In this document: positions 16,201-59,880 of the stretch, in pieces | Layout of the letters: each line of letters opens with the position of its first letter | Position numbering within the stretch: the stretch's first letter is position 1 | NCBI GenBank assembly: GCA_025716815.1 | Contig: JAIXMN010000005.1 | Location: forward strand, 992,001 to 1,056,000 | Origin: Dichotomocladium elegans | Lineage: Eukaryota > Mucoromycota > Mucoromycetes > Mucorales > Lichtheimiaceae | DNA: 64,000 nt | Reading direction: 5' to 3' | Position numbers and translations under genes: made by a program | The notes under the pieces: generated by a model | Told to the model about the DNA's origin: nothing | Seen by the model: only the letters and a program-made list of their open reading frames with translations | The model's database searches: none

Positions 16201-16202
16201 GA

Positions 16203-29107: not shown

Positions 29108-29719
29108 GCGTGAGACAGTCAAAAAGTCAAAATAAAGAGCCGTCGAGAGTCAAGATCCAATGCTTACGCGGTTGCATGAATGCTTGTGATTGCTTCCAGG
29201 GTGTCCCCTCCATAGACTGCAGTATGTTGTTCACCGTATTGCTCTCTGATTTCCTCAGTGCCAGCACCGATTTTCTGATTTTGGATAGATTCTTCCTAGC
29301 TCCTCCTGATCTTTACATGCGATCACAAAAGAGGTTGACCGCCACATTTTAAAAATATATATAGGGAGTGTATCAAAGATCAGGATCTCGAAACTCGAAT
29401 CAACGTAGAGAGCACCAATGGCATTCACATGGTCACCAGCGGTGACATGGTGGGCTGCATTGTCTAAGGACGCGGCCACATGCTTAATGCTTCTTGAATG
29501 GTAATCCTTCCATTTGTTTTCTAGGCTGCTGGAGCGTGGAATGGGGATTGCTTCAGCACCCGTTTGTAGCCCGTCTTGGGATTAAACAGGATACTTGGTT
29601 TGGGTTGGGGACGGCAGTGGTTGCTTATGTTACCAATCATTGAGAGCGCCAAGATCGATTGGATTTATGTACACCGCCCATAGTAACGTTGAGTGCAAAA
29701 ACTATGTCCAGCGCGCCGA

Positions 29720-29881
29720 TCATACGGTCAGCAATCTGCCATCTGCCTTGTGCTTTGACGGATGATCATCTGGATACCATTCTGAACGTTCTATACAATT
29801 CTCGTATTCTGTTGGAGAGAGTCCTAGACGTAGCATAGATCTAAGATTGTGTATAGCGCGTAACGCAATGGTCTCACTCAT
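29720..29881 (-). pseudogene. Short ORF (53 aa), start lost in the other arm
   Basis: The minus frame starts MSETIALRAIHNLRSMLRLG and contains ERSEWYPDDHPSKHKADGRL. The mirrored copy near 59110-59270 has ACG in place of the ATG. The sequence is well composed (WYPDDHP, charged) and may be one exon of a former element gene, but I do not recognise it. Confidence 0.25.
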
Positions 29882-31220
29882 TTAAGGACGCTAATAAAAC
29901 ACATAACGGGGAATATCTGCTACACTTCAACACAACGGTCGCTGAGGGTTGTGCAAGTCACCACGTCAGGAAGGAGATGCTGATTATGATCCTTACGCCC
30001 TATCCTGCATTGTCAAGTTGTACGCGGTATGGAGGAGCAATTCAGAACGTACGATACCCGACATATTATCGGGTACCGGTAGTAACGGAGAGGGGGGTGT
30101 GCTTCGCCATGAATAAGCATTCAATCTGTTATTTGTGCATAAAACTGTATATGTGATTTACTTTATTTTTTTACAACGTCTATTATTTACATATGTCGTC
30201 TATAATACATAAGAAATACGGTATAATTGGGGAATATTCGCAAGCATCTGGAGATCTTGTTTCTGTCCTCTCAATGTAGACTGTCGCCGTGCGTCCAGAG
30301 TAGTAGTTCTAACGTGTTCTGAACCAGACAAACGAAATAGTTAGCATATGAGATAATTGATGATGAAGATATTCGCACAAAACATACCTGATAATTTAGT
30401 TCAGCATATGGGAGGCATTGTAAGCCTTTCACTTGTTGTAAAGTGATCTGTGAGTTGTAAACAGTAGCCCGCTAGGTGGTCTTTCCAGATTGACAAGTAA
30501 AGGCGGTTCATCAGATGAAACCTTATCGCAACCGGGTTGTGGTTTGATGCGCGTGAATAAGATCCATGTCAAAAATGTTCTTGGATGTTCTTGAAATGAG
30601 CTCTGCTGATTGCATTCGACGAAGACCGGCGGGAACTGTTCTTGTGTTCATTGTGTGTGTGTGTTGTTTTTCGCGATCTTTTTGTGCTTCTCGACTGTTT
30701 GTATACACCTTTTCTTGTAATGATAGATATGGTTGGGTGTTTTTCCCTCTGAGGATGAGGGCAATGTCCAGGTTTGCTTCATAGACTTTATCATAAAATG
30801 CTCCTTGACTTGACATGATAAGGTAGTCGTCGCCTTCGTGTTATGATCAGAAGCAGCTGAATGGATGCATCGTTCCGCCAAAAGTATTTTTGTGGACAAG
30901 GTTATTGACGTAGTAGATATCTTCGTTTGTGAAATACACCGCCTGGGATCCATGTCAATATGTTGTGTCTCCAAAGTAGTTTCGGTTCAAAATAAAAGCG
31001 TGCTGGCCACCCGCTGTTATAATGCCAATAGTTCCGGTTAAATTAGACCACTGTAGCGAATTATCCCCATAACGATTTTGTCTCGCTCAGAGATCTCCCG
31101 AGAAGAGCGCGTAAGGTCTGTAAGCGTAGTAACGGGGAAACCGCTGCATATGCGAGAATATAAACTCGCTGCCTTCGCCGAAAGAGTGCAAGTGCACGGA
31201 AATGCTGTGCACAAAGCACG

Positions 31221-31995
31221 TCATGATCACATTCCCGAGGGGCATTGGGATCCCCCGTCAAGAGAATCATCCACAGCAGGAGAGGATAATCTCCCCTACA
31301 TCCCTCTGTGGCTTCCCAGGCGCCGCCGAACCGCCTACACCAATGGTGACCCTGTAGAACAACAGAGAAGACACACCGCAACAAACCCCTCGTGAAGGAG
31401 ACGCCGCACGAAAGCGGATATTGATATCCACAAGGACATGCAATGCTATATATCCGTTAATACGCTGATGCAGATGCTGTACATACCGTCAGTATACAAC
31501 ATATTGCGCAAGAAAGAGAATTCGAGGTCAGGAAACATCAACGCTCCAGCCGGAGTCTGGGTGCTATTCCATACTAAAGCGTAGTTAGTAAAGCCATATC
31601 ATGCAAAACGATGGAAAATAAAGCTCAACATACCTTTGTATACTTCTTATAGAGGAGACCATGACAGCCAGTCCACATTTGGAGTGGTTGTCATGGTCTC
31701 CAGTACTGGTGCGCTGATGGGTCTGCCCTCGAACAATCTTTCTTGCTCAGAATGTGTGTACTGACGGTATGTGCATCACCTGCATTCAGTGTGCTAACGG
31801 GTATATAGTATTGCATGTTCTTGTGGATGTCAATATCCACTTTCTAGCGGCGTTCCTTCACGAAGGACTTGCTACGGTGTGGCTTCTCCGTCATCCTACA
31901 GGGGCACCATCGGGTAGGTGATTCGACAGCACCTCGGAGACCACCGAGAGATGCAGGAAAGATCATCCCCTCCAGCCATGGATGACTTCCATCAG
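31221..31995. repeat. Nested imperfect palindrome inside the left arm
   Basis: 31221-31600 is similar to the reverse complement of about 31710-31995. Both sides contain GTGAAGGAG-CGCCGC-GAAAG and then GATATTGA-ATCCACAAG, followed by CATACCGTCAGTA. Identity looks like roughly 80 percent. The centre is a long hairpin at 31654-31701. The same structure is present in the right arm. Confidence 0.8.
31654..31701. repeat. 13-bp perfect stem hairpin at the nested palindrome centre
   Basis: GGAGACCATGACA at 31654-31666 and its exact reverse complement at 31689-31701, with a 22-nt loop whose ends (CCAGTCCA / TGGAGTGG) nearly pair. Confidence 0.95.
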
Positions 31996-32269
31996 GGTTC
32001 ACCCGCCGCCCAAGGGACCACGAAAAGACACCAGTGGTCCCCTCAGAGACTGCTGGACTACACAGGTCGATGTGCGCTAATTAGTAACATAGCTATGTAT
32101 TTGGTTTCTAGATTTGACTTACGACAGCCCCTGACTCGGGAAGCCACCACAGAGCGGAGGAGCGGAAAACAGGAAGAAAAGGAAGGCGGAACAAGAGGAA
32201 GCGGAACTATAGAAGAGTTGGACAACGATAAGCTTTGATTTTCACAGTATATATTACATGCCAGCGGTT

Positions 32270-32790
32270 AATACATACCCAAGGAGCGGAAAGGAACGAA
32301 AGAGGAGCAGGAGGCGGAAGAAGAGGAAGGCGGCAGGAGAGGAAGCTACAGAGGCGGGTAGAGTCAAAGATAAGCTTTTGGAATTCATAATATCGTGCAT
32401 TACAAAAAAGACGTTAAACATACCAATAAGGAGCGGAAGGAGGGCACACCGCCCTACATGTCATCGTCGCGGACGGGAGAGGCAGGCATGTAGGGCGGGG
32501 ACGGAGAGCGAGAAGAGGACGAGAGAGAAGTAAGGGAGGAAGGACAGGACGAGAGAGTGGAGGGAGAGGAAGGAGTCGCAAGGTGGAGAAGTGACGGGGA
32601 CAAGGTTCAATGAACGGAGAGGAAGAAGGAAGGGGAGGAGTTGATGAAGGAGAGGAAGGTGAAGACAAAGGAATGGAAGGAGGGAGAAGGAGAGGAGACA
32701 ACGGCGGAAGAAGAGGAGAGGACAGCGGAAGAGGAGGAGAGGACGACGGAAGGAGAGGAGAATACAGAGAGGAGAGGACTGAGACGATGG
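32270..32790 (+). repeat. Polypurine tract with a 12-bp inverted repeat
   Basis: About 520 bp almost wholly A/G on this strand (GGAGCGGAAAGGAACGAAAG-type runs, GAGGAGAGGAC units). Two direct copies of about 140 bp can be seen at 32147-32290 and 32290-32440, each ending in GATAAGCTTT and a CATACC-A-GGAGCGGAA block. A perfect inverted repeat CCGCCCTACATG / CATGTAGGGCGG lies at 32449-32460 and 32487-32498. Long proline/serine-rich minus frames here are composition artefacts. Confidence 0.8.
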
Positions 32791-33070
32791 CGACGGGGGG
32801 CATAGGTCCATAGGCTCGGGACCAGCCCGAGCAGAGAGAAGAGTTGGCGCGGCGACGGGGGGCATAGGTCCATAGGCTCGGGACCAGCCCGAGCAGAGAG
32901 AAAAGTTGGCGCCGGCGACGGAGGGCATAAGTCCATAGGCTCGGGACCAGCCCGAGCAGAGAAAAAAGGAGAGTCCGGACATATCTCCATCGGCTCGGGA
33001 CCAGCCCAAGCCGACAGAAGAGGAGACTCCGGACATATCTCCATCGGTTCGGGGCCAGCCCACGAACCGA
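32791..33070. repeat. Hairpin minisatellite, five units
   Basis: Five tandem units of 54-63 bp. Each carries a hairpin around G-G-G-A/G-C-C-A-G-C-C-C: GCTCGGG/CCCGAGC in units 1-3 (32813, 32875, 32938), TCGGCT/AGCCGA in unit 4 (32990) and CGGTTCG/CGAACCG in unit 5 (33045). Stem bases change on both sides in units 4 and 5, keeping pairing. On the minus strand the units translate to repeats such as SARAGPEPMDLCPPSP. Confidence 0.85.
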
Positions 33071-33599
33071 AAAGCCAAGGAGCAAGAGAAAAAGAAGAGC
33101 GCGAGAAGACGGGTGCAGAAAACATGTTATAATAACTGTTACGAAATCCAAACTAACATTCTGCTCGTATTTATATACTTTTTTTTTGGTGGGGGCAAGG
33201 AAAATCGATGGGGGGATTCCAGGATTAAGCGTCTTCTTACGAAACCACATACTTCCTACTCCACCCATGGCGATTCACCTTATTCTTTACCCTTCGAGCA
33301 GCCTCATCTCTGGTTTGATGATGATATAGCCGGTCTGTCTAGCTGGGTAGTATTTGGTCCACACGTCGATTAACGGTTGTAAAGAGTTTCTGTAAGAAAA
33401 CGTTCTCTCCCCCCAAGTAAGCAACATATATGATATCATTTTTTTTATTCTTTCCCCATCGTCGTGTATGGCTTCCTTTACATTGCTTGATATTAAATTC
33501 TCGATAAAATCGATGTTTGCGATTCTCCTCGTACTAGTCTCGTCTTTTTCCGTTGCGTTTTGACATACTTTCGCCCATTACCACCATAACACTGGTTGT

Positions 33600-34030
33600 C
33601 ACAGTGGCTGCGTGCGGGGGATCAGCGCTCTGCAGCTCCGCTAACTAAGGTAAAAAATACACACATGCTGTTGTGTAGAAACATCAGGATTCACACGCCC
33701 TGTGGTGGGGGGATATGGCAGAGATGAATCCTGATGTGTTTGAGAAATGGATATACTGGTCTGTGCATTCCGGAGGCAAGGTTGCACAGAAAGCTTTCTA
33801 TGGTTCACAGGTCACACGCTCCCCCCAAATGGAAAGCATGCGAAAATGTCAATGCACCATAAATGCGGATGGTTGCTCTCTCTTTGAACTTCACTCTTGC
33901 AGCAAACGTTTCATAGCTGCCCCATCAATGAGTAACACGTAAGATATATGAGATACGAAATCTACTGATAACACTGCAATGTCTCTTAACGAAAGAGCGC
34001 CGAGTGTTATATGTGATGGTAAAAAAATTT
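33600..34030 (+). repeat. Internal dispersed repeat, copy 1
   Basis: Similar in the same orientation to 38765-39230: both contain ACTGGTTGTCACAG-GGCTG, then GGGGATCAGCG, GTGTAGAAA, a degenerate CAGAAAGC-CT-TGGT block, and AAATGC-GATGGTTGCT. Both copies are frame-broken. It is mirrored in the right arm at about 54.96-55.39 kb. Confidence 0.75.
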
Positions 34031-35559
34031 CTCAGCAGCATGGCGCCAAGACATTTATTCCATCCGCTCTTTTTTATGATGTCAATGTTTATTTTTTGTC
34101 GGGTCCCGCGGGCTTCCTGTTCCCTCCTTCTGGCACCGCCACAGTCCAGACTGATTCACCCATGCATTCCTCCTCGACTACCTCGAAGGAAGCCAAGAAT
34201 ACTTGGCCATTTGAAGTAGCAAAATCGTTGGTAGATGCAGTCCTGGTTCCACCATTCCTCAGGTCGCGCGACGCTCTATGACCTCATTGTCAAAGCAAAA
34301 AGATGGAAGGCTGGAAAGAATGCTGGCGCAACCCGGGTAGTGACCTCTTGGTGCCAGATACTTAAGCAATCCCAGACAAGTGCGAAAGACCTTATGCAAC
34401 GCTGGCTTTGGCCTTGACTTGGACGATTATGCACGAAGCATGAAGACGATCGAGCAGTAGAAAGAGTATCATTGCTGCTTCTACGATCGACCTGATGGCA
34501 TGCTGGGTAAAAAGGAAGCTCCGGCAACCTGTCGCAATGGACGTTGGTTTTTACAATAGCTCTATCTCAGTTGCCCAACGGCATTTATCAAGCTGTTCAA
34601 TTTGGCATTTGATTTTCCTTAGCTAATGTGTAGTATCCATGATGAAGGGTCAGCGGCTGCTGCTTTAGAAGCCCTCACCACTGAGAGGGATGAAGAGGGG
34701 AGCTCGTGCGCGTTTTACCAAGAGGTGACCATCTCATCTCTTTTGCTGACCATTGGGACTTTTTCGACACCGAGTAAAATAGCCAGTCCTGGCGGTCGCG
34801 CTCCTAAGATGAGAACGGGTTGATCTTGTTTCGCGCCAGATGGTTTGCGTGTATCATGATGGTACGTGGTAACTCAAACTACATAGGGTATCGCTAAAGC
34901 GCTCTTTGTTGATTTTTATCTTTATTTTTGCACAATCTGTAAACATACCAATAGGACAAGTCCTGTATGGAAGCCGTTAAATATTTCCACAGAGCATCAC
35001 AGTTCGGCTTCTGTAAAATTAAAGCGGATTGCGTTTGTACGGCCTATTGCGCTTGGGTCGTTTTGCCAAGGGATGAGAGGAAATTGAAACGTACATCGTC
35101 ATCCAGATAGTTTGTGAATCTAATTAGTACTATATTTCTCCATATGACTTGGTTATTGATGGCCATTTTCTAGGTCCATATATATCGCGTTATACATAAT
35201 GAAACTATTGGCTTCCGGCTTCTATTCCCTTGTGAATCTCGTGACTGAAGTATTATGATTGTGCAAAGAAAGTCGTGATACAGTAAAGATCCCATGGGTT
35301 GCTGTGGATGTTGTGTCAAATGCCGTCGATAAAGTAAAACTTGTATTAGCGAGGTGTAATTGTATGGGCTTCGTTTCCTCTTGGCCCTGATTTATCATCG
35401 CAGGCTGGCGAGAATCATGTGTCATGCATAGATAATGATAATGAGTGCCAGTATTGAGGCGAATGAGGGTGATGATATCGGTACCTTGAGCATGTAGAAT
35501 AACGGTCTCGTTGATATCGACTGTTGGGCCCGATCGACTTCTACTTTGTTGTAATCAAT

Positions 35560-37010
35560 ATACGTCATTCATCAGCAGCATAGCAATAAAAAGTAGGGTA
35601 TCATACCTTGGCGATGCAAAAGTGTTGTTTTGTTGCAGTGTCTTGCCGCGGTCAGTCGCCGTAGGACACTGCTAGAATCTATGTATATATATTCACCATG
35701 AGCAACAAAATAATACACATCATAATATCATACCTTTTGGACATATATGTGTGGATGTGTAGATGGGGAATGTCGGCATGCACTTTGACAGGATGGGATC
35801 ATACTAGTGAAACCACCCAAGTCTGGCGTGCCCTTTCAATCTCGGCAAGGTGTTGTCTGAGTGGAATCTATAGAAGATACCACCCAGGTCAGGCCTGCCT
35901 TGTTTACCGTCCTCCTGGGCGGGGAGGACTTTGCGCTCCACCGATGCGCCGCGACCAGTCTTACTACTTACCCGCCGTTCCCGCGTTGCAATACAATGCT
36001 GCTCAGATACCAACCATACTGGCCCAGAATGAGCTCGATGTGCGCGCACCCCCTCCTGAAGAGCACCTCTGGGACAGTCAATGCATTGCCTTGGCGAGTA
36101 GCCTCTAAGAGCAGCGAACTCCTCGCACCAGAGGGCTTTTACGCCTCGGGGCGGACCATTGCATCGAGGACTTGTTGATGAATGGCCTAGAAAAATAAAA
36201 ATACATGCATGGTTCAGTATTGAGTGTATGGATTATACAGTTAAAAAAGAAAGGTAACTTACTTGAAAAAAGGGACGAAGACGAAAGGGACGACGAAAAC
36301 CACCCACTCCACCTCTCCACACTCCACACTCCACACTCCACACTCCACACTCCACACTCCACACTCCACACTCCACACTCCACACTCCATCTCTCCACAC
36401 TCCAACACTCCACACTCCACCACTTCACCTCTCCACCTCTCCACACTCTACCTCTCCATCACTCCACCACTCCACAACTCCACCACTCCACCTCTCCACA
36501 CTCCACCACCCCACCTCCCTACCTCCCCACCTCTCCAACAACTCAAAAGCAAACAACTCAAAAGTGCGGGCAGTTTTAGGGCATGCCCAGGCCCAGCCGC
36601 CAGTCGCCAGTCGCCAGTCACCAGTTGACAGTTGCCGTAGGCATTGCTACGGTAGACATGTATCATTCATCAGCAGCATAGCAATACACACCATGATATC
36701 ATACATCCAAGACAGGTATGTCTTGCTTAAATATCCTCGATGGACTGGAGGAGGTGCACCACGATCGGTCGTTCTATGTACTTGCCGGTCCGGCAAGTCA
36801 ATACAACGCTGTGCTGATACCAACAGCAGAGGTCCATTTCAACTTGCAGGTGCACGCGCCACAAGAGCTACTCCAGTTCAACCAGTGTAAGGCCGGGACA
36901 GGTAGCCTCAGAGCGAAGCACTCCCAGCACTAGTTCATCGAGGTCTCCCTGATGGATGGACTAGAAGAGTAAAATGAATGCGAAAGAAAAAGAAAAGAAA
37001 AAAGACAGCT
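35560..37010 (-). repeat. Two paralogous modules with intron-like borders
   Basis: On the minus strand, two modules each start with a donor-like CAA|GTAAG and an acceptor-like TTCTAG, then a related segment C-C-A-T-x-C-A-T-C-A, a degenerate gap and CCTCGATG, and later a GGTATGATAT element with TGCTGATGAATG. That last element occurs three times in this stretch. Reading frames are broken (the best pieces contain QYNAAQIPTI and QYNAVLIPTA). It looks like a decayed, duplicated spliced gene, or a non-coding transcript that keeps splice sites. Mirrored at about 51.96-53.45 kb. Confidence 0.5.
36316..36389. repeat. (CCACACT)n heptamer satellite
   Basis: About ten tandem heptamers, flanked to 36545 by degenerate CTCCAC-type repeats. 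The counterpart at 52520-52690 keeps the GTGGAG composition but is heavily rearranged. The G-rich strand (AGTGTGG) could form quadruplex-like structures. Confidence 0.9.
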
Positions 37011-37544
37011 TACTTGGAAAGACAACGTGGACAAAAAACCACCCACCGTGCTTCGCTCACACCCATCCGAAGGATAAGCTACCTAAAAAAAAAGTGCCAA
37101 TATAAAGAGGAGCTGTGGAAGAATTTTGTTGGGCAGCGTTTCCGGTGGGTCGTAAAGCTTCAAAGCCTTGTCACCTAGATAGTCGCTTGCCGCAGTCGCC
37201 TAACGCTTGTGCTGCAACCTTTAGTCGGCCAGTAGTAACATAAAGCACCCAGCATGGTATGGTACCCCTTCTTCTAGATATGGCTTCGTGCACGAGAAGA
37301 AGGGAAAGACAGAAGGAAGCGTAGAAGAGGTTTTTGGGGAAGGGAAAAAAGGAGAAAGAGGGAAGAAGTGCGAAGAACGAACAAATGAGGAAATCTTAGA
37401 CTATATTTTTTTGTCTTTCACGCTTTCGCTCCTTCACACGTCTCGCATGCGGTGTCCACAATTCAACCTATCATATCCGCGATTGCTTGCCATGTATCCG
37501 ATTTTGCCAAGAAACCATCTTGATCTTCTCTTCACGACACTGTC

Positions 37545-37784
37545 TTGGAGCAATTGGCAACGCCTCCCCCGCAAAACGGAGCGCAGCAAGTACGTAGAGT
37601 AAACCAAGAGGGCGACGATATCGACGCACGTGACATTGGCCGAAATTCAATCACAGAAATGGATCATACCGCCCTCCCATTCTCCAGCTGTAATAAAGAT
37701 CGATCCCGTAAAAGCAAAAACCCGCATTACTCGCCTGATTACTTCTCGACCTCGGTTAGCTCCAATCCTCTCGCCATGTCATAA
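37545..37784 (+). pseudogene. ORF fragment of an unidentified element (left copy)
   Basis: The frame carries ATPPPQNGAQQVRRVNQEGD and ends early. Compared with the right-arm copy the start codon is TTG in place of ATG, and about 40 bp are missing near 37780. The sequence is hydrophilic and proline/serine-rich, as in structural ORFs of retroelements, but I recognise no family. Confidence 0.3.
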
Positions 37785-38639
37785 TCCAGAGATCCCCACC
37801 GATCCCGCCCTCATTCACTTTAAAAACCATATTGCATCTCCACTTGCACTACATACAATAACAGGTGCCTCCCCCTTCTATCCTATACCAGACCCTCGCC
37901 TTCTATCATCCGCTCGCCATTCTTACTCTTAGCTGATCACCCGCTCTGGCATATTCTTCATTGATTTGTTGTTTCTTGTGTAACTCCAACGCCCCTCGTC
38001 CGCTTCATCTCCCCCCTCTCCCCCACCCACTCCACTTTCGGGGCCGTTTTCCCTCCGTCCTTCTCACCTTCTTGTATCCGCCTCTATCAACCAAGAAAAC
38101 CACAACCACCATCACCCCAAAAATCCTCTTGCCCTATTTAAATGTTACTTCTATTTTGCGGGTAGTACAAGGCTTTCCAAACCAAAGCGGAGAGGTCGAG
38201 ATTCTATCGCAGGCATACCTAATTCGAAAACTGCTTCTTGACAGCTGGAAATAAATGCTCACAGCGTGTATTCGGCACCATGACCTCTTTCCCATTTTGT
38301 ACAGTATATATCTCTATGTTCATTAGAAATGCACACGTTAGGCCGAGGATCTCTCATGTCTCATCTCGATCTTCAATCCGTCATTCCAGATAATTCGGCT
38401 ACTTGCAGGTCGGAGTTGAGGTAAAGTTGAGTAGCGGCTTAACATGAGCCATGATGATACCAGCAGCTCGTTTATTGTCATCGTCTACATTGGGGTATGC
38501 ATGTCCAATTTTTTTCTCATGTAATTTCCGGCCGTCCTCGCTTCAAACTGGTGCAATAGCAGGGAAAATGGAATTGGTCATCGTGTTCCTTGACCTGCTC
38601 CGTCCCAAATGACTTTGTAACAGTACATGCACCGTTATG

Positions 38640-41088: not shown

Positions 41089-41100
41089 TTTTTTTTTTTT
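41089..41100 (+). terminator. T-run, RNA polymerase III terminator of the left U6 copy
   Basis: Twelve T residues directly after the 3' hairpin; four or more T are enough for Pol III termination. Confidence 0.8.
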
Positions 41101-48348: not shown

Positions 48349-48603
48349 TTACCTTAATTCGATATCAACACAGGTAACGGCAATCCCTACAGTAAAAGCG
48401 GAGACCGTGTAATTGTGCGGATTTCGAGTTTTAAAAACATTGCGCTTACGAAAATCCCATATGCTACGCAGATATTCAGTGTGAGAACAAACGGACTGAA
48501 GTGAGTACATTTCCTTATCAATGGCATAGTCCATAGGTTCAGGGCAGCCACGCTCATCAACGACATGGCCTTGGCCATCTTGGTAGAAAAATAGGTTGCC
48601 CAT
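48349..48603 (-). pseudogene. Transposase leader ORF (84 aa), right arm
   Basis: Mirror copy of 41372-41626 with an identical translation; contains SVCSHTEYLRS. The transposase body is missing here as well. Confidence 0.55.
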
Positions 48604-48886
48604 TCAGAATGGAAAATGTATAGAAGAGAAAGCTTCTTTTTTTGTACGATCCTGCGACTTCGATTTTGAAAAATAGTTGTATAATGAACAATAAATGCTT
48701 AAATGCTCTGCATTACAAGCTGACGCAAGCCGTAACCTGTTGAGCCTCCGACGGTACGCATTGGTGGTTTAGGGAATCTGCCCCCCAACTCTACACCCCC
48801 AACTTCCCACACGCAGAGAGGGCAGCCCGTCTGTTAACCGAGCGTCTCTCCTATGTTTTCATTTTCATTTTTGTAAAAAAAAAAAA

Positions 48887-48999
48887 GTGCTCAATAGAGC
48901 AATCCAACTCAGGAAGTTTAGTGTCATCCTTGTGCAGGGGCCATGCTAATCTTCTCTGTATCGTTCCAAATTTAAGAAGTAACAGAGGTCCGAAGACTT
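48887..48999 (-). ncRNA. U6 spliceosomal snRNA-like gene (right arm)
   Basis: Mirror copy of the left U6, on the minus strand, with ACAGAGA, the GTC-TTCG-GAC 5' loop and the TGCTC-TATT-GAGCA 3' hairpin all unchanged. It is followed by a T12 run (48886-48875). The two copies transcribe toward the spacer, in opposite directions. Confidence 0.88.
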
Positions 49000-51104
49000 G
49001 TTGCTGGACATCTGTTCAAATTTTCCTTGCACACACGGCACCTCCGATTCTATCGCAAGTTGTGGGTCTATTTTGGAAGTCAGCGCGTCATTATATCTGG
49101 TGACTTTGCGTTGTATTCCGCTAGATTTTTATTACTATCGATAGGTTTGGGTCACGTATATAATCACATACAGTTGCATACTTAAGCGAATTGGGTGATA
49201 TGGATGGTTATCAAAAGAAATGGGAGAAGGAAGGAGTAGAGACATTGGATGAATATATGAAAAGCGCGGGGGTCGTGGTTTAAATCACCGGATACCAAAT
49301 TTTCACTAACCGACTTTAGCCATCAGCCTGAAGGATCAAGGTCATGCGTAAGCAGCCTTTGCCTTTCACAATTGTTCCTTGCGCATTCATATGCATCTTC
49401 GCAGTCTTTCACCCGTAATGCAGTAACTTCAATTCAATCTGACAAAGCGACGCGACCGCGGGTGCGATTTAAGATAATAGATATAGACAGTCTTTCAATT
49501 TCAACATGAGCTCAATCGGTCGTTGAACTAAGGAAAAACACAAGCTTTTCGTGTTTGGGTCTTGAATTGTTCAATATTGACGCATGAGATAACCTTGCTA
49601 TGGGGATGGAGACACTGACATTCCTAGTCGATTTAAAACAACCTAATTGAACTGAGAGCTTTGTCTCTTGATGAAGCCGTGATATGGATGCAGTATTGCC
49701 CTGATTATCCTTTCTACCTCCCAACTTAAAGCGGCAGGAGTGGGAGAAACCCTCCTCCAGCCGACGCAACATTCGAGTGGAACAGGATGTGTTGACATTC
49801 GCTTTCTCTTCAGCGTTATGCTCTCCTTGCCATCTGAAGGATGTGTTGGTCACTGCCCAAGGAACCGATTTGGTTCGATTGGAGAAAGATTGACTATTTC
49901 TCGATAGCGTTGAAGGAGTATTCTTTTATTGTACTTGAGTGCCCGGCGATTGAGATGGATGGGTGGATTAGAGGAATATCTTTATAATAGTTCTATTAGA
50001 ACGGTGATGGGAGTGATTAAACCTGTGGGGACTTGCCGAATGGAGGCAACCCTTTTCATTGTTCTCTTTTAAGACCAGTGACGAGTACAGGGCAGAGGAA
50101 GTACCTTTGATAGGTGCGATGTTTCCGGTCACGCATACGGATATGAAATATCGTAACTGCATCTCCGGCAACGATATTATGTACCATACCCACTTCCCCT
50201 GTACGACGATCCTATATGCATACCACTGTTGTTACCCCGCAACTGTTTGCTATATAAACAAGGATGCCCTCTGACGTCGGGCATCCCCACGTTGTATTAT
50301 TATAATCATCGTTCTTCTCGCTGTATTTGCGCTTCCTCCGCGTTGTATATCATATGCTTTTCGTAAGTGTTCGCATAACGGTGCATGTACTGTTACAAAG
50401 TCATTTGGGACGGAGCAGGTCAAGGAACACGATGACCAATTCCATTTTCCCTGCTATTGCACCAGTTTGAAGCGAGGACGGCCGGAAATTACATGAGAAA
50501 AAAATTGGACATGCATACCCCAATGTAGACGATGACAATAAACGAGCTGCTGGTATCATCATGGCTCATGTTAAGCCGCTACTCAACTTTACCTCAACTC
50601 CGACCTGCAAGTAGCCGAATTATCTGGAATGACGGATTGAAGATCGAGATGAGACATGAGAGATCCTCGGCCTAACGTGTGCGTTTCTAATGAACATAGA
50701 GATATATACTGTACAAAATGGGAAAGAGGTCATGGTGCCAAATACACGCTGTGAGCATTAAAATCTTAATTCTGCTATTCTTTTCTTTATTGCCAGCTGT
50801 CAAGAAGCAGTTTTCGAATTAGGTATGCCTGCGATAGAATCTCGACCTCTCCGCTTTGGTTTGGAAAGCCTTGTACTACCCGCAAAAATAGAAGTAACAT
50901 TTAAATAGGGCAAGAGGATTTTTGGGGTGATGGTGGTTGTGGTTTTCTTGGTTGATAGAGGCGGATACGAGAAGGTGAGAAGGACGGAGGGAAACGGCCC
51001 CGAACGTGGAGTGGGTGGGGGAGAGGGGGGAGATGAAGCGGACGAGGGGCGTTGGAGTTACACAAGAAACAACAAATCAATGAAGAATATGCCAGAGCGG
51101 GTGA

Positions 51105-51516
51105 TCAGCTAAGAGTAAGAGTGGCGAGCGGATGATAGAAGGCGAGGTCTGGTATAGGATAGAAGGGGGAGGCACCTGTTATTGTATGTAGTGCAAGTGG
51201 AGATGCAATATGGTTTTTAAAGTGAATGAGGGCGGGATCGGTGGGAATCTCTGGATTAGCCGCGATTGGTGAATTTGATAGTGGTGAGTATGACATGGCG
51301 AGAGGATTGGAGCTAACCGAGGTGGAGAAGTAATCAGGCGAGTAATGCGGGTTTTTGCTTTTACGGGATCGATCTTTATTACAGCTGGAGAATGGGAGGG
51401 GGGTATGATCCATTTCTGTGATTGAATTTCGGCCAATGTCACGTGCGTCGATATCGTCGCCTCTTGGTTTACTCTACGTACTTGCTGCGCTCCGTTTTGC
51501 GGGGGAGGCGTTGCCA
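51105..51516 (-). pseudogene. ORF fragment of an unidentified element (right copy)
   Basis: Keeps the ATG lost in the left arm (MATPPPQNGAQQVRRVNQ) but lacks one G soon after, which shifts the frame; downstream it keeps the roughly 40 bp missing on the left and continues as DPALIHFKNHIASPLALHTI. The two arms thus carry different lesions in the same ORF. Confidence 0.3.
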
Positions 51517-51960
51517 TTGCTCCAAGACAGTGTCGTGAAGAGAAGATCAAGATGGTTTCTTGGCAAAATCGGATACATGGCAGCAATCGCGGATATGATA
51601 GGTTGAATTGTGGACACCGCATGCGAGACGTGTGAAGGAGCGAAAGCGTGAAAGACAAAAAAATATAGTCTAAGATTTCCTCATTTGTTCGTTCTTCGCA
51701 CTTCTTCCCTCTTTCTCCCTTTTTTCCCTTCCCCAAAAACCTCTTCTACGCTTCCTTCTGTCTTTCCCTTCTTCTCGTGCACGAAGCCATATCTAGAAGA
51801 AGGGGTGCCATACCATGCTGGGTGCTTTATGTTACTACTGGCCGACTAAAGGTGCAGCACAAGCGTTAGGCGACTGCGGCAAGCGACTATCTAGGTGACA
51901 AGGCTTTGAAGCTTTACGACCCACCGGAAACGCTGCCCAACAAATTCTTCCACAGCTCCT

Positions 51961-53450
51961 CTTTATATTGGCACTTTTTTTTTAGGTAGCTTATCCTTCG
52001 GATGGGTGTGAGCGAAGCACGGTGGGTGGTTTTTGTCCACGTTGTCTTTCCAAGTAAGCTGTCTTTTTTCTTTTCTTTTTCCTTTCGCATTCATTTTACT
52101 CTTCTAGTCCATCCATCAGGAGACCTCGATGAACTAGTGCGGGAGTGCTTCGCTCTGAGGCTACCTGTCCCGGCTTACACTGGTTGAACTGGAGTAGCTC
52201 TTGTGGCGCGTGCACCTGCAAGTTAAATGGGCCTCTGCTGTGGTATCAGCACAGCGTTGTATTGACTTGCTGGACCGGCAAGTACGTAGAACGACCGATC
52301 GTGGTGCACCTCCTCCAGTCCATCGAGGACATTAAGAAAGACATGCCTGTCTTGGAGGTATGATATCATGGTGTGTATTGCTATGCTGCTGATGAATGAT
52401 ACATGTCTACCGTAGCAGATGTCTACGGCAACTGTCAACTGGCGACTGGCAACTGGCGACCGGCGATGGGCCTGGGCATGCCCTAAAACTGCCCGCACTT
52501 TTGAGTTGTTGCTTTTGAGTTGTTGGAGTGGGGTGGGAGTGGGTGTGGAGTGGAGGTGGAGTGTGGAGTGTGGGGGTGGAGTGTGGAGAGGTGGAGTGTG
52601 GAGTGGAGAGGTGGTGTGGAGTGTGGAGTGTGGAGGTGGAGAGTGGGTGTGGGTGTGGAGTGGGAGTGTGGAGAGTGGAGTGGGTGGTTTTCGTCGTCCC
52701 TTTCGTCTTCGTCCCTTTTTTCAAGTAAGTTACCTTTTCTTTTTTAACTGTATAATCCATACACTCAATACTGAACCATGAATGTATTTTTATTTTTCTA
52801 GGCCATTCATCAACAAGTCCTCGATGCAATGGTCCGCCCCGAGGCGTAAAAGCCCTCTGGTGCGAGGAGTTCGCCGCTCTTAGAGGCTACTCGCCAAGGC
52901 AATGCATTGACTGTCCCAGAGGTGCTCTTCGGGAGGGGGTGCGCGCACATCGAGCTCATTCTGGGCCAGTATGGTTGGTATCTGAGCAGCATTGTATTGC
53001 AACGCGGGAACGGCGGGTAAGTAGTAAGACTGGTCGCGGCGCATCGGTGGAGCGCAAAGTCCTCCCCGCCCAGGAGGACGGTAAACAAGGCAGGCCTGAC
53101 CTGGGTGGTATCTTCTATAGATTCCACTCAGCCAACACCTTGCCGAGATTGAAAGGGCACGCCAGACTTGGGTGGTTTCACTAGTATGATCCCATCCTGT
53201 CAAAGTGCATGCCGACATTCCCCATCTACACATCCACACATATATGTCCAAAAGGTATGATATTATGATGTGTATTATTTTGTTGCTCATGGTGAATATA
53301 TATACATAGATTCTAGCAGTTTCCTACGGCGACTGACCGCGGCAAGACACTGCAACAAAACAACACTTTGCATCGCCAAGGTATGATACCCTACTTTTTA
53401 TTGCTATGCTGCTGATGAATGACGTATATTGATTACAACAAAGTATAAGT
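51961..53450 (+). repeat. Two paralogous modules with intron-like borders (right copy)
   Basis: Mirror of 35560-37010. Donor-like CAA|GTAAGC near 52054 with TCTTCTAG near 52107, and CAA|GTAAGTT near 52728 with TTTTCTAG near 52800; GGTATGATAT elements near 52358, 53255 and 53380. Acceptor-like TAG ends follow two of them. No long reading frame connects the pieces. Confidence 0.5.
52520..52690. repeat. GTGGAG-type satellite (diverged counterpart of the heptamer array)
   Basis: Irregular GTGGAGTG / GGTGGAG repeats replacing the regular heptamers of the left arm; one of the few places where the arms differ strongly. Confidence 0.8.
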
Positions 53451-55918
53451 CGATCGGGCCCAACAGTCGATATCAACGAGACCGTTATTCTACATGCTCA
53501 AGGTACCGATATCATCACCCTCATTCGCCTCAATACTGGCACTCATTATCATTATCTATGCATGACACATGATTCTCGCCAGCCTGCGATGATAAATCAG
53601 GGCCAAGAGGAAACGAAGCCCATACAATTACACCTCGCTAATACAAGTTTTACTTTATCGACGGCATTTGACACAACATCCACAGCAACCCATGGGATCT
53701 TTACTGTATCACGACTTTCTTTGCACAATCATAATACTGCAGTCACGAGATTCACAAGGGAATAGAAGCCGGAAGCCAATAGTTTCATTATGTATAACGC
53801 GATATATATGGACCTAGAAAATGGCCATCAATAACCAAGTCATATGGAGAAATATAGTACTAATTAGATTCACAAACTATCTGGATGACGATGTACGTTT
53901 CAATTTCCTCTCATCCCTTGGCAAAACGACCCAAGCGCAATAGGCCGTACAAACGCAATCCGCTTTAATTTTACAGAAGCCGAACTGTGATGCTCTGTGG
54001 AAATATTTAACGGCTTCCATACAGGACTTGTCCTATTGGTATGTTTACAGATTGTGCAAAAATAAAGATAAAAATCAACAAAGAGCGCTTTAGCGATACC
54101 CTATGTAGTTTGAGTTACCACGTACCATCATGATACACGCAAACCATCTGGCGCGAAACAAGATCAACCCGTTCTCATCTTAGGAGCGCGACCGCCAGGA
54201 CTGGCTATTTTACTCGGTGTCGAAAAAGTCCCAATGGTCAGCAAAAGAGATGAGATGGTCACCTCTTGGTAAAACGCGCACGAGCTCCCCTCTTCATCCC
54301 TCTCAGTGGTGAGGGCTTCTAAAGCAGCAGCCGCTGACCCTTCATCATGGATACTACACATTAGCTAAGGAAAATCAAATGCCAAATTGAACAGCTTGAT
54401 AAATGCCGTTGGGCAACTGAGATAGAGCTATTGTAAAAACCAACGTCCATTGCGACAGGTTGCCGGAGCTTCCTTTTTACCCAGCATGCCATCAGGTCGA
54501 TCGTAGAAGCAGCAATGATACTCTTTCTACTGCTCGATCGTCTTTATGCTTCGTGCATAATCGTCCAAGTCAAGGCCAAAGCCAGCGTTGCATAAGGTCT
54601 TTCGCACTTGTCTGGGATTGCTTAAGTATCTGGCACCAAGAGGTCACTACCCGGGTTGCGCCAGCATTCTTTCCAGCCTTCCATCTTTTTGCTTTGACAA
54701 TGAGGTCATAGAGCGTCGCGCGACCTGAGGAATGGTGGAACCAGGACTGCATCTACCAACGATTTTGCTACTTCAAATGGCCAAGTATTCTTGGCTTCCT
54801 TCGAGGTAGTCGAGGAGGAATGCATGGGTGAATCAGTCTGGACTGTGGCGGTGCCAGAAGGAGGGAACAGGAAGCCCGCGGGACCCGACAAAAAATAAAC
54901 ATTGACATCATAAAAAAGAGCGGATGGAATAAATGTCTTGGCGCCATGCTGCTGAGAAATTTTTTTACCATCACATATAACACTCGGCGCTCTTTCGTTA
55001 AGAGACATTGCAGTGTTATCAGTAGATTTCGTATCTCATATATCTTACGTGTTACTCATTGATGGGGCAGCTATGAAACGTTTGCTGCAAGAGTGAAGTT
55101 CAAAGAGAGAGCAACCATTCGCATTTATGGTGCATTGACATTTTCACATGCTTTCCATTTGGGGGGAGCGTGTGACCTGTGAACCATAGAAAGCTTTCTG
55201 TGCAACCTTGCCTCCGGAATGCACAGACCAGTATATCCATTTCTCAAACACATCAGGATTCATCTCTGCCATATCCCCCCACCACAGGGCGTGTGAATCC
55301 TGATGTTTCTACACAACAGCATGTGTGTATTTTTTACCTTAGTTAGCGGAGCTGCAGAGCGCTGATCCCCCGCACGCAGCCACTGTGACAACCAGTGTTA
55401 TGGTGGTAATGGGCGAAAGTATGTCAAAACGCAACGGAAAAAGACGAGACTAGTACGAGGAGAATCGCAAACATCGATTTTATCGAGAATTTAATATCAA
55501 GCAATGTAAAGGAAGCCATACACGACGATGGGGAAAGAATAAAAAAAATGATATCATATATGTTGCTTACTTGGGGGGAGAGAACGTTTTCTTACAGAAA
55601 CTCTTTACAACCGTTAATCGACGTGTGGACCAAATACTACCCAGCTAGACATACCGGCTATATCATCATCAAACCAGAGATGAGGCTGCTCGAAGGGTAA
55701 AGAATAAGGTGAATCGCCATGGATGGAGTAGGAAGTATGTGGTTTCGTAAGAAGACGCTTAATCCTGGAATCCCCCCCATCGATTTTCCTTGCCCCCACC
55801 AAAAAAAAGTATATAAATACGAGCAGAATGTTAGTTTGGATTTCATAACAGTTATTATAACATGTTTTCTGCACCCGTCTTCTCGCGCTCTTCTTTTTCT
55901 CTTGCTCCTTGGCTTTTC

Positions 55919-56197
55919 GGTTCGTGGGCTGGCCCCGAACCGATGGAGATATGTCCGGAGTCTCCTCTTCTGTCGGCTTGGGCTGGTCCCGAGCCGATGG
56001 AGATATGTCCGGACTCTCCTTTTTTCTCTGCTCGGGCTGGTCCCGAGCCTATGGACTTATGCCCTCCGTCGCCGGCGCCAACTTTTCTCTCTGCTCGGGC
56101 TGGTCCCGAGCCTATGGACCTATGCCCCCCGTCGCCGCGCCAACTCTTCTCTCTGCTCGGGCTGGTCCCGAGCCTATGGACCTATGCCCCCCGTCGC
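55919..56197. repeat. Hairpin minisatellite (right copy)
   Basis: Mirror of the five-unit array at 32791-33070, with the GGGCTGGTCCCGAGC-type hairpins retained, including the variant stem in the unit nearest 55920. Confidence 0.85.
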
Positions 56198-56718
56198 CAT
56201 CGTCTCAGTCCTCTCCTCTCTGTATCTCTCCTCCCTTCCGTCGTCCTCTCCTCCTCTTCCGCGTCCTCTCCTCTTCTTCCGCCATTGTCTCCTCTCCTTC
56301 TCCCTCCTTCCATTCCTTTGTCTTCACCTTCCTCTCCTTCGTCAACTCCTCCCCTTCCTTCTTCCTCTCCATTCATTGAACCTTTGTCCCCGTCCTTCTC
56401 CACCTTGCGAGTCCTTCCTCTCCCTCCACTCTCTCGTCCTGTCCTTCCTCCCTTACTTCTCTCTCGTCCTCTTCTCGCTCTCCGTCCCCGCCCTACATGC
56501 CTGCCTCTCCCGTCCGCGACGATGACATGTAGGGCGGTGTGCCCTCCTTCCGCTCCTTATTGGTATGTTTAACGTCTTTTTTGTAATGCACGATATTATG
56601 AATTCCAAAAGCTTATCTTTGACTCTACCCGCTTCTGTAGCTTCCTCTCCTGCCGCCTTCCTCTTCTTCCGCCTCCTGCTCCTCTTTCGTTCCTTTCCGC
56701 TCCTTGAGTATGTATTAA
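56198..56718 (+). repeat. Polypyrimidine tract (right copy)
   Basis: Mirror of the polypurine tract; reads TCCTCTCC-type runs on the plus strand. Differs from the left copy by small length changes near 56230-56280. Confidence 0.8.
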
Positions 56719-57286
56719 CCGCTGGCATGTAATATATACTATGAAAATCAAAGCTTATCGTTGTCCACCTCTTCTATAGTTCCGCTTCCTCTTGTTCCGC
56801 CTTCCTTTTCTTCCTGTTTTCCGCGTCCTCCGCTCTGTGGTGGCTTCCCGAGTCAGGGGCTGTCGTAAGTCAAATCTAGAAACCAAATACATAGCTATGT
56901 TACTAATTAGCGCACATCGACCTGTGTAGTCCAGCAGTCTCTGAGGGGACCACTGGTGTCTTTTCGTGGTCCCTTGGGCGGCGGGTGAACCCTGATGGAA
57001 GTCATCCATGGCTGGAGGGGATGATCTTTCCTGCATCTCTCGGTGGTCTCCGAGGTGCTGTCGAATCACCTACCCGATGGTGCCCCTGTAGGATGACGGA
57101 GAAGCCACACCGTAGCAAGTCCTTCGTGAAGGAGACGCCGCTAGAAAGTGGATATTGACATCCACAAGAACATGCAATACTATATACCCGTTAGCACACT
57201 GAATGCAGGTGATGCACATACCGTCAGTACACACATGCTGAGCAAGAAAGATTGTTCGAGGGCAGACCCATCAGCGCACCAGTACT

Positions 57287-57334
57287 GGAGACCATGACAA
57301 CCACTCCAAATGTGGACTGGCTGTCATGGTCTCC
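57287..57334. repeat. 13-bp stem hairpin (right copy) in a nested palindrome
   Basis: GGAGACCATGACA at 57287-57299 and its complement at 57322-57334; the surrounding nested palindrome spans about 56.99-57.77 kb. Positions sum with the left copy to 88,988, the axis of the giant repeat. Confidence 0.95.
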
Positions 57335-59880
57335 TCTATAAGAAGTATACAAAGGTATGTTGAGCTTTATTTTCCATCGTTTTGCATGATATGGCTTTAC
57401 TAACTACGCTTTAGTATGGAATAGCACCCAGACTCCGGCTGGAGCGTTGATGTTTCCTGACCTCGAATTCTCTTTCTTGCGCAATATGTTGTATACTGAC
57501 GGTATGTACAGCATCTGCATCAGCGTATTAACGGATATATAGCATTGCATGTCCTTGTGGATGTCAATATCCGCTTTCGTGCGGCGTCTCCTTCACGAGG
57601 GGTTTGTTGCGGTGTGTCTTCTCTGTTGTTCTACAGGGTCACCATTGGTGTAGGCGGTTCGGCGGCGCCTGGGAAGCCACAGAGGGATGTAGGGGAGATT
57701 ATCCTCTCCTGCTGTGGATGATTCTCTTGACGGGGGATCCCAATGCCCCTCGGGAATGTGATCATGACGTGCTTTGTGCACAGCATTTCCGTGCACTTGC
57801 ACTCTTTCGGCGAAGACAGCGAGTTTATATTCTCGCATATGCAGCGGTTTCCTCGTTACTACGCTTACAGACCTTACGCGCTCTTCTCGGGAGATCTCTG
57901 AGCGAGACAAAATCGTTATGGGGATAATTCGCTACAGTGGTCTAATTTAACCGGAACTATTGGCATTATAACAGCGGGTGGCCAGCACGCTTTTATTTTG
58001 AACCGAAACTACTTTGGAGACACAACATATTGACATGGATCCCAGGCGGTGTATTTAACAAACGAAGATATCTACTACGTCAATAACCTTGTCCACAAAA
58101 ATACTTTTGGCGAAACGATGTATCCATTCAGCTGCTTCTGATCATAACACGAAGGCGACGACTACCTTATCATGTCAAGTCAAGGAGCATTTTATGATAA
58201 AGTCTATGAAGCAAACCTGGACATTGCCCTCATCCTCAGAGGGGAAAAACACCCAACCATATCTATCATTACAAGAAACGGTGTATACAAACAATCGAGA
58301 AGCACAAAAAGATCGCGAAAAACAACACACACACACACACAATGAACACAAGAACAGTTCCCGCCGGTCTTCGTCGAATGCAATCAGCAGAGCTCATTTC
58401 AAGAACATCCAAGAACATTTTTGACATGGATCTTATTCACGCGCATCAAACCACAACCCGGTTGTGATAAGGTTTCATCTGATGAACCGCCTTTACTTGT
58501 CAATCTGGAAAGACCACCTAGCGGACTACTATTTACAACTCACAGATCACTTTACAACAAGTGAAAGGCTTACGATGCCTCCCATATGCTGAACTAAATT
58601 ATCAGGTATGTTTTGTGCGAATATCTTCATCATCAATTATCTCATATGCTAACTATTTCGTTTGTCTGGTGCAGAACACGTTGGAACTACTACTCTGGAC
58701 GCACGGCGGCAGCCTACATTGAGAGAACAGAAACAAGATCTCCAGATGCTTGCGAATATTCCCCAATTACATTGTATTTCTTATGTATTATAGACGACAT
58801 ACGTAAATAATAGATGTAAAAAAATAAAGTAAATCACATATACAGTTTTATGCACAAAAAAACAGATTGAATGCTTATTCATGGCGAAGCACCCCCCCAT
58901 CTCTGTTACTACCGGTACCCGACAATATGGCGGGCATCGTACGTTCTGCATTGTTCCTCCATACCGCGTACAACTTGGCAATGCGGGATAGGGCGTAAGG
59001 ATCATAATCAGCATCTCCTTCCTGACGTGGTGACTTGCACAACCCACAGCGACCGTTGTGTTGAAGTGTAGCATATATTCCCCGTTATGTGTTTTATTAG
59101 CGTCCTTAAACGAGTGAGACCGTTGCGTTACGCGCTATACACAATCTTAGATCTATGCTACGTCTAGGACTCTCTCCAACAGAATACGAGAATTGTATAG
59201 AACGTTCAGAATGGTATCCAGATGATCATCCGTCAAAGCACAAGGCAGATGGCAGATTGCTGACCGTATGATCGGCGCGCTGGACATAGTTTTTGCACTC
59301 AACGTTACTATGGGCGGTGTACATAAATCCAATCGATCTTGGCGCTCTCAATGATTGGTAACATAAGCAACCACTGCCGTCCCCAACCCAAACCAAGTAT
59401 GCTGTTTAATCCCAAGACGGGCTACAAACGGGTGCTGAAGCAATCCCCATTCCACGCTCCAGAAGCCTAGAAAACAAATGGAAGGATTACCATTTAAGAA
59501 GCATTAAGCATGTGGCCGCGTCCTTAGACAATGCAGCCCACCATGTCACAGCTGGTGACCATGTGAATGCCATTGGTGCTCTCTACGTTGATTCGAGTTT
59601 CGAGATCCTGATCTTTGATACACTCCCTATATATTTTTAAAATGTGTCGGTCAACCTCTTTTGTGATCGCATGTAAAGATCAGGAGGAGCTAGGAAGAAT
59701 CTATCCAAAATCAGAAAATCGGTGCTGGCACTGAGGAAATCAGAGAGCAATACGGTGAACAACATACTGCAGTCTATGGAGGGGACACCCTGGAAGCAAT
59801 CACAAGCATTCATGCAACCGCGTAAGCATTGGATCTTGACTCTCGACGGCTCTTTATTTTGACTTTTGACTGTCTCACGC

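What the first reader, a model, noticed from the sequence alone, without database searches (positions are those of the whole stretch)
29108..59880. Giant inverted repeat: arms of 13.0 and 12.1 kb around a 5.7-kb spacer in a gene-free island
Seen directly: paired positions keep a constant sum (88,988 for the outer two thirds, about 89,920-89,975 inside), and the edges can be placed at 29108/59880 and 42138/47807. Nuclear palindromes of this size are rare and unstable. This one is old enough to have collected substitutions and indels, yet most of it is still nearly identical, so something keeps the arms alike (gene conversion) or it formed fairly recently. The transcribed arms could give long double-stranded RNA and feed RNA interference.
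Basis: seen in the sequence. Interest (0 to 1): 0.9.

Follow-up and report, generated by a model that had tools for sequence, protein, structure and literature searches.

The report
Transposon-seeded giant palindrome in a fungus
A 31-kb DNA palindrome in a mould chromosome most likely arose when a broken end folded back on the inverted ends of a jumping gene and copied its own flank, and its two arms seem to have been kept alike since by copying from one to the other; this is an unusually readable example of known mechanisms.

Summary
The palindrome is real. Arms 29108-42138 and 47807-59880 (reverse complement) match at 98.8% over 11,970 aligned positions around a 5.67-kb spacer. The genome (39.4 Mb, unnamed) looks like Mucorales near Zychaea. 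The right edge (59880) is native: 15 places elsewhere match across it (67-78% identity). No match continues across the left edge (29108), so the left arm is the derived copy. The centre is a decayed long-TIR Tc1/mariner transposon whose own TIRs form the innermost ~0.6 kb of the arms. It sits at a TA inside another element, H; the same half of H lies on both sides, inverted, where a plain insertion would leave two different halves. Best reading: fold-back synthesis primed by the TIRs copied the right flank outwards. Arm divergence is strongly patchy (0.35% to 5.3%) while left-arm divergence from paralogue C24 is flat. I read this as gene conversion of an old palindrome, though some paralogue pairs are patchy too. 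Each arm carries a U6 snRNA gene, two of four found in the genome, so the island is not gene-free. Centromere and mobile-element readings are not supported; dsRNA is untested. Side finding: the transposon family carries a second, apparently catalytically dead transposase under purifying selection.

The parts
29108..42138 (+). Left arm (13.0 kb), inferred to be the derived, copied arm
   Evidence: polarity
47807..59880 (-). Right arm (12.1 kb), inferred to be the native arm; lacks 907 bp that the left arm has
42139..47806 (.). Spacer = inner part of the central transposon
   Evidence: pieces of C56:222272-228005 and C20:3-7217 match at 87-95%
41516..48459 (-). Central Tc1/mariner element, shortened; its remaining TIRs (~0.6 kb each) are the innermost part of the palindrome arms; roughly 0.7 kb of TIR missing on both sides at the same place (terminal bases recognised by eye)
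46197..47420 (-). Remnant of transposase gene A (DDE_3)
44651..45722 (-). Remnant of second, transposase-like gene B; stop and frame break in this copy
41328..41516 (+). 5' fragment of repeat H (itself Tc1-like), left of the central element
   Evidence: 93.7% to L008 copy
48459..48647 (-). Same 5' fragment of H, inverted, right of the central element; the rest of H is on neither side
40973..41082 (+). U6 snRNA gene, left arm
48893..49002 (-). U6 snRNA gene, right arm, same as the left one in the 360 bases printed
38693..39599 (+). 907 bp present only in the left arm; the right arm reads as a crossover product between two 83%-identical direct repeats (38616-38757, 39523-39664)
29869..30322 (+). 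Most diverged patch of the arms (24 mismatches, 5.3%), read as unconverted
33336..36207 (+). Long stretch with few differences (10 mismatches in 2.87 kb, 0.35%), read as converted
59881..60374 (+). Right flank that is contiguous with the right arm in paralogues, showing that 59880 is not an ancestral boundary
   Evidence: C90:407397-408375 (81%), C67:7531-8559 (66%)
29100..29112 (.). Left junction: novel joint, 2-bp GC overlap

Best explanation
The structure is a fold-back inverted duplication seeded by a long-TIR Tc1/mariner transposon and since homogenised in patches by gene conversion, mainly from arm to arm. Inferred order: (1) the transposon inserted at a TA inside repeat H. (2) The chromosome broke or was resected just left of it. 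(3) The exposed 3' strand, ending in the left TIR, annealed to the right TIR of the same strand, and synthesis ran outwards along the right flank, copying it up to 59880. (4) The free end was joined to unrelated DNA at 29107 with a 2-bp overlap. (5) Afterwards the arms collected substitutions, the right arm lost 907 bp by direct-repeat recombination, and patches were overwritten. Shown: polarity of the junctions, TIRs at the centre, the duplicated half of H, patchy divergence, the chimeric deletion. Inferred: the break, the annealing step, and conversion as the cause of the patches.
For: Native right and novel left junction: of 43 matches to 59700-64000 (40 of 89 candidates scored), 18 besides the trivial self-match overlap the arm end; 15 of those 18 span 59880 by at least 30 bp on each side, and the other three are the left arm itself and two C24 copies that stop before it. 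The 15 are about 11 elements, several counted at both ends. Of 6 non-self matches to the left flank none comes nearer than ~980 bp to 29107. The 14 places that match the first bases of the left arm begin at 29108-29113. TIRs at the centre: C56 carries the same core with 1315-bp arms, 99.92% identical, whose inner edge maps to the palindrome's inner edge within about 10 bp. The same 189-bp half of H lies, inverted, on both sides and no other half nearby. Both TIRs lack the same ~0.7 kb, as expected if one side was copied from the other. Conversion: relative variance of divergence (index of dispersion less its shuffle mean, over the mean count; my own measure) 1.05 for L-R against 0.019 (L-C24), 0.065 (R-C24) and 0.108 (L-C90a). 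Derived changes fall on both arms (62 L, 46 R, 15 ambiguous, 17 without outgroup, of 140). Precedent: yeast inverted repeats up to 30 kb apart and up to 25% divergent fold back in long ssDNA and give inverted duplications (PMC10164571; abstract, passages and Discussion read).
Against: TA target duplications are palindromic, so the sequence cannot exclude that the transposon landed at the centre of an existing palindrome. The left arm may once have been longer and been trimmed later. Patchiness is not unique to the arms: R versus C24 (9 of 5000 shuffles as high; repeat tract not masked there) and L versus C90a (0 of 5000) also exceed chance, and direct repeats on C90 are patchy as well (relative variance 2.15 and 0.54), so ectopic conversion from other copies could contribute. 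Over the shorter interval compared with C90a (30137-33634) the arms' own signal is weaker: index 2.25, 19 of 5000 shuffles. Most of the 15 right-edge matches are only 67-71% identical. The left junction rests on the assembly alone.
Confidence: 0.7

Rival explanations
1. Palindrome first: a spacerless palindrome formed by some other route, and a Tc1/mariner element inserted at the TA at its exact centre. The element then survived because an interrupted centre is more stable.
For: The joined flanks without the element would read as a perfect palindrome centred on TA (read). TA flanks are seen in both family members checked (C56, C59).
Against: Needs a hit at one particular TA in ~25 kb, unless hairpin tips attract it. 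Needs the shared ~0.7-kb TIR loss to have arrived with the element or to have been converted later. The pre-existing centre would have had to fall inside H by chance.
Confidence: 0.12
2. Two independent copies of a dispersed segmental repeat happened to land in opposite orientation on either side of a transposon.
For: Parts of the arms recur on C24, C90, C43, C67 and others, and C24 holds its own inverted pair (5.6 kb, 92.8%, 16 kb apart).
Against: The inverted match runs through H and U6 and into the TIR on both sides, and both TIRs share one truncation point; independent copies would have arbitrary inner ends. No scored match outside C68 holds the whole arm (33 of 33, 40 of 83 and 40 of 335 candidates scored).
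Confidence: 0.06
3. Inverted-repeat centromere of the Candida tropicalis / fission-yeast kind.
For: Size and layout resemble it (core 5.7 kb, arms 12-13 kb; putative C. sojae centromeres have cores of ~2 kb with 3-12 kb arms, PMC7292649, passages read). It lies in a stretch without long reading frames outside the structure itself, near the middle of a 1.88-Mb contig.
Against: The core is a decayed transposon whose near full-length copies were found only on C56 and C20 (34 of 34 candidates scored; ~73% cousins sit on other contigs), not a core-plus-arm unit shared by chromosomes. Mucor centromeres as described have pericentric Grem-LINE1s (PMC7377519, passages read); none of the 150 scored reverse-transcriptase matches lies here, though that test is weak.
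Confidence: 0.04
4. Assembly artefact (false join or duplicated arm).
For: No reads were available; the left junction has no independent support.
Against: The arms differ by 140 substitutions and 47 indels with changes derived on both sides. The right arm reads as a recombinant over a direct repeat. The right junction is matched by paralogues. The spacer is a coherent element known elsewhere in the genome.
Confidence: 0.05

Closest known systems
Fold-back inverted duplications primed by spaced inverted repeats (yeast Alu-IR assays, PMC10164571; human inverted duplications, Hermetz 2014, seen only as a reference there)
   Same: Pre-existing inverted repeats kilobases apart at the centre; one native and one novel junction; flank copied in inverted orientation.
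   Different: Seen here in a natural fungal genome, with transposon TIRs as the seeds, old, and interstitial on both sides, not terminal.
Gene-converting palindromes (human Y P6, PMC3723533, abstract read; Caenorhabditis inverted repeats, PMC1803023, passages read)
   Same: Arms kept alike by conversion, in kilobase tracts in P6; arms here show stretches of low and high divergence.
   Different: 98.8% identity overall, not >99.9%; no protein gene recognised in the arms; conversion inferred from one genome.
Large palindrome on chromosome 14 of Zymoseptoria tritici (PMC3681731, passages read)
   Same: Tens-of-kb palindrome in a fungal genome, associated with transposons.
   Different: There transposons flank the palindrome; here one sits at the centre and supplies the innermost arms.
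IS630-Tc1-mariner transposons
   Same: TA target site, DDE_3 transposase, TIRs.
   Different: 8.4 kb (C56), TIRs of 1.1-1.3 kb, and two transposase-like genes of which B lacks the first catalytic Asp.

Membership tests
Fold-back inverted duplication | Pre-existing inverted repeats at the turning point | tested here: met
   Transposon TIRs, shared with C56 and C20
Fold-back inverted duplication | One junction native, the other novel | tested here: met
   15 of 18 non-trivial matches over the arm end span 59880; 0 of 6 non-self left-flank matches reach 29107
Fold-back inverted duplication | Repair signature (microhomology or inserted bases) at the novel junction | tested here: inconclusive
   2-bp GC overlap only
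Fold-back inverted duplication | Dicentric or break-induced-replication intermediate | not testable with these tools
   Historical event, no strain data
Gene-converting palindrome | Divergence between arms clustered, not explained by local rate | tested here: met
   0 of 5000 shuffles; relative variance 1.05 against 0.019-0.108 for three comparisons with C24 and C90a; paralogue pairs within C90 are also patchy (2.15, 0.54), and the arms' signal is weaker over 30137-33634 (19 of 5000)
Gene-converting palindrome | Conversion events observed between individuals | not testable with these tools
   One genome only
Inverted-repeat centromere | Core or arms shared by all chromosomes | tested here: not met
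   Near full-length core only on C56 and C20, as transposon copies without these arms; ~73% cousins elsewhere. Contigs were not assigned to chromosomes
Inverted-repeat centromere | Kinetochore binding | not testable with these tools
   No ChIP data
Mucor-type mosaic centromere | Pericentric Grem-LINE1s nearby | tested here: inconclusive
   No reverse transcriptase among 150 scored matches (of 528 candidates) lies in the window; the one read out, on C56, looks Ty3/Gypsy-like by eye, so the matches are not all LINEs
Whole palindrome as a mobile element with 13-kb TIRs | Both outer edges are element ends | tested here: not met
   Right edge is internal to a longer repeat in 15 places
IS630-Tc1-mariner (central element) | TA target site duplication | tested here: met
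   C56 and C59 ends, read by eye
IS630-Tc1-mariner (central element) | DDE_3 domain and catalytic triad | tested here: met
   Gene A: DDE_3 E 2.6e-27, FIDE/CDNA/NPIE read by eye; gene B matches DDE_3 only at E 0.0099, below its cut-off, and lacks the first Asp in 6 of 6 copies

The most novel reading that the evidence does not exclude
The long-TIR, two-transposase Tc1/mariner family is itself the palindrome maker. One-ended cleavage by its own transposase supplies the break, its kilobase TIRs supply the fold-back, and the palindromes that result become conversion-maintained pockets that can carry host genes such as U6. Other copies of the family would then seed palindromes in related strains.
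Probability: 0.12. Interest if true: 0.72.

Novelty: new member of a known kind. Interest (0 to 1): 0.42.

Why it matters
Fold-back at spaced inverted repeats is shown in yeast assays and inferred in disease chromosomes. Here a natural, old case still shows its polarity, its seed and its later history. It gives a route from an ordinary transposon with long ends to a giant palindrome, and a system in a normally haploid fungus (recalled, not tested) for measuring arm-to-arm gene conversion. The second, apparently dead transposase under purifying selection would be a notable arrangement for Tc1/mariner elements if it holds in other species.

Tried and rejected
Mobile element with 13-kb TIRs: the first ~200 bp of the arm recur as inverted pairs 6-7 kb apart on C28, C30, C37 and C48, which first suggested that 29108 was a transposon end. 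Rejected because those copies continue past the right edge.

Second palindrome on C56: a 66% inverted repeat outside the C56 transposon looked like an older palindrome around the same element. It is two retroelement pol frames in opposite orientation, so it is not a second case.

Subtelomeric origin: arm part 35.0-38.8 kb recurs on many small contigs and near contig starts, but other copies lie inside longer contigs (for example C28, C50, C90); not pursued.

Pfam found nothing in the four arm reading frames tried; the arms were not scanned in all six frames. The homology search with gene B found nothing at E <= 1e-3 among 4612 candidates, which says little beyond that word-limited search. One literature search on two-transposase IS630/Tc1 elements (listing only) showed no obvious match; I make no claim that it is not in print.

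Outgroup polarisation used the twelve stretches of DNA fetched by then, alignments of 300 bp or more. Two repeat tracts (32600-33070, 36290-36650; 35 of 140 mismatches, 755 of 11,970 columns) were dropped before the clustering test. The left arm's copy of both tracts was masked in the paired tests, except in R versus C24 and the C90 pairs. The most and least diverged stretches were picked after seeing the data.
Full report
What is there. The window is C68:992001-1056000 of a 39.4-Mb, 122-contig genome; C68 is 1,881,682 bases. A KH-domain protein at 19123-20559 has its closest named relative in Zychaea mexicana (59%), with two unnamed hits at 65-66% and other Mucorales behind. So the organism is inferred to be a mucoralean mould near the Lichtheimiaceae. 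Self-comparison confirms the inverted repeat at the coordinates given: 98.83% over 11,970 aligned columns, 140 substitutions, 47 indels. Pfam-supported protein genes lie between 1.9 and 24.1 kb. From 25.2 to 64 kb the only stop-to-stop frames of 150 aa or more lie in the arms or the spacer; this is not a gene prediction, and genes with short exons could be missed.

Polarity of the junctions. I searched the genome with the DNA on each side. With 59700-64000 (43 matches, 40 of 89 candidates scored), 18 matches besides the trivial self-match overlap the last 181 bases of the arm. Of these, 15 run across 59880 by at least 30 bases on both sides; the other three are the left arm itself and two C24 copies that end earlier. 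The 15 are about 11 elements, because several are matched at both of their inverted ends; identity is 67-71% except C90 (78%; C90:407397-408375 at 81% in a local alignment). With 25300-29107, the 6 matches other than self all end about 980 bases or more before the left junction. The 14 places that match the very start of the left arm begin at 29108-29113, and those re-aligned do the same. So the right arm with its right flank is the older contiguous unit, and the left junction is new. Either copying stopped there or a longer left arm was later cut back.

The centre. The spacer and the innermost ~0.6 kb of both arms match a transposon present on C56 (220936-229328) and C20. On C56 it has 1315-bp inverted ends that are 99.92% identical, flanked by TA on both sides; a cousin on C59 (18011-24676, ends 1143 bp, 99.56%) is alike. 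In the window both ends lack the same ~0.7 kb and begin at the same place, in a TA inside another repeat, H (terminal bases recognised by eye). H continues past that point in the two other copies I looked at (L007, L008), with a frame that looks Tc1-like by eye. Around the central element the same 189-bp half of H appears on both sides, inverted, and the other half on neither. A simple insertion would leave two different halves, so one side was copied from the other.

Mechanism. Fold-back synthesis from the transposon TIRs explains these facts together: symmetric centre, symmetric TIR loss, duplicated half of H, native right edge, novel left edge with a 2-bp overlap. In yeast, inverted repeats up to 30 kb apart and up to 25% divergent fold back in long single-stranded DNA, with DNA synthesis from the fold and a duplication as result (PMC10164571, abstract, passages and Discussion). 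The spacer here, 5.7 kb, is well inside that range. The break itself and the annealing are inferred.

Later history. Outside two repeat tracts there are 105 mismatches in 11,215 columns, strongly clustered: index of dispersion 3.3-4.4, against about 0.9-1.0 in shuffles, and 0 of 5000 shuffles as high at any of three window sizes. The patch 29869-30322 has 24 mismatches (5.3%); 33336-36207 has 10 in 2.87 kb; both were picked after seeing the data. Divergence of the left arm from C24 is flat (92.7-93.8% identity in 1-kb bins; index 1.19, 714 of 5000 shuffles as high), where the arms over the same 29474-34548 have index 4.14 and 0 of 5000. So neither local mutation rate nor constraint readily explains the patches. 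Scaled to the mean, relative variance is 1.05 for the arms, against 0.019, 0.065 and 0.108 for L-C24, R-C24 and L-C90a. Against a purely arm-to-arm reading: R-C24 and L-C90a also depart from chance (9 and 0 of 5000 shuffles; R-C24 without masking); paralogue pairs on C90 are patchy too (2.15 and 0.54); and over the C90a interval, 30137-33634, the arms themselves give index 2.25 with 19 of 5000 shuffles, a relative variance of about 0.47 by hand. Conversion may therefore act among these repeats more widely. In the 5.3% patch the distance to C24 is 5.7%, which suggests that the palindrome is not much younger than that paralogue split, with the caution that the patch is the extreme one. Derived changes lie on both arms: 62 left, 46 right, 15 ambiguous, 17 without outgroup, of 140. 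The right arm lost 907 bp by crossover between two direct repeats: it matches copy 1 up to the middle of the repeat and copy 2 after it. Against that order, C43 and two C67 copies also have the short form, but they follow copy 1 through most of the repeat, so they do not look like the same deletion.

U6. Four matches in the genome: these two and two on C50 (47 of 2868 candidates scored, so a lower bound). The two arm copies are the same in the 360 bases printed. The RNA body matches the C50 copies at 95.5% (110 positions), while the flanks match at 49-57%, so the RNA seems to have been constrained. By eye, a TATA-like stretch upstream of the C50 genes is missing in the arm copies while an upstream CCCACAACTTGC is kept, so expression is uncertain. 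The longest mismatch-free run of the arms (832 columns from 40770) holds U6.

What it is not. It is not a mobile element bounded by its own ends. It is not shown to be a centromere. Near full-length copies of the core were found only on C56 and C20, as transposon copies, unlike the shared centromeres of Candida tropicalis (PMC7292649 passages). No reverse transcriptase lies here among 150 scored matches, though that test is weak because the one retroelement I read out looks Ty3/Gypsy-like by eye, not like a LINE. The dsRNA idea remains open; Piwi-domain matches exist on C68 (far from here, 1.39 Mb), C31 and C32, with an in-frame stop in the longer C68 match and in the C32 match.

Side finding. 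The central transposon family encodes two proteins. A is a DDE_3 transposase with relatives across Mucorales (364 proteins at E <= 0.001 among 4783 candidates, best named Circinella minor 44%). B is 25% identical to A. Its first catalytic aspartate, as aligned to A, is glycine in 6 of 6 copies, the second is D or N, and the glutamate is kept; the 6 copies fall into two close groups (C59, C72, C94; C56, C20, window). Between the C59 and C56 elements dN/dS is 0.11 for A and 0.17 for B by a simple Nei-Gojobori count, with dS near 1, so the values are rough. B therefore appears to be a maintained, catalytically dead partner. No relative was found at E <= 1e-3 in one word-limited search.

Verdict. 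Observation confirmed; interpretation partly supported. A real, old, transposon-seeded fold-back palindrome with signs of gene conversion: a new member of a known kind, with an unusually complete record. The left junction and the conversion claim need reads and sister strains.

Noticed in passing
L033:6456-9411 (C59), L020:7614-8834 and C56:224348-225466; window 44651-47420: Long-TIR Tc1/mariner family with two transposase-like genes; gene B has lost the first catalytic Asp in the 6 copies read, yet seems under purifying selection (dN/dS 0.17) and had no homologue at E <= 1e-3 in one search.
   Followed up: partly
C50:177521-177630 and 202532-202641 (L031, L032): The other two U6 genes found in the genome also form a pair, same strand, 25 kb apart, bodies identical over 110 positions and downstream flanks 61%.
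   Followed up: no
C30:729257-737688, C48:1135-10000, C28:128002-136726: A separate family of elements with inverted ends of at least 1.7-1.9 kb at 99.1-99.6% identity and ~70-bp tandem repeats at the outer side.
   Followed up: no
C24:156159-161748 / 177706-183240: Another inverted pair holding the same arm unit, 5.6 kb at 92.8%, 16 kb apart; direct copies on C90 show very patchy divergence.
   Followed up: no
window 15769-17280: A 1.5-kb copy of repeat H (79%) in the gene-bearing part of the window.
   Followed up: no
window 31267-31549 / 31706-31985: Internal ~280-bp inverted repeat (79%) inside each arm, also present in the paralogues on C24 and C90.
   Followed up: no
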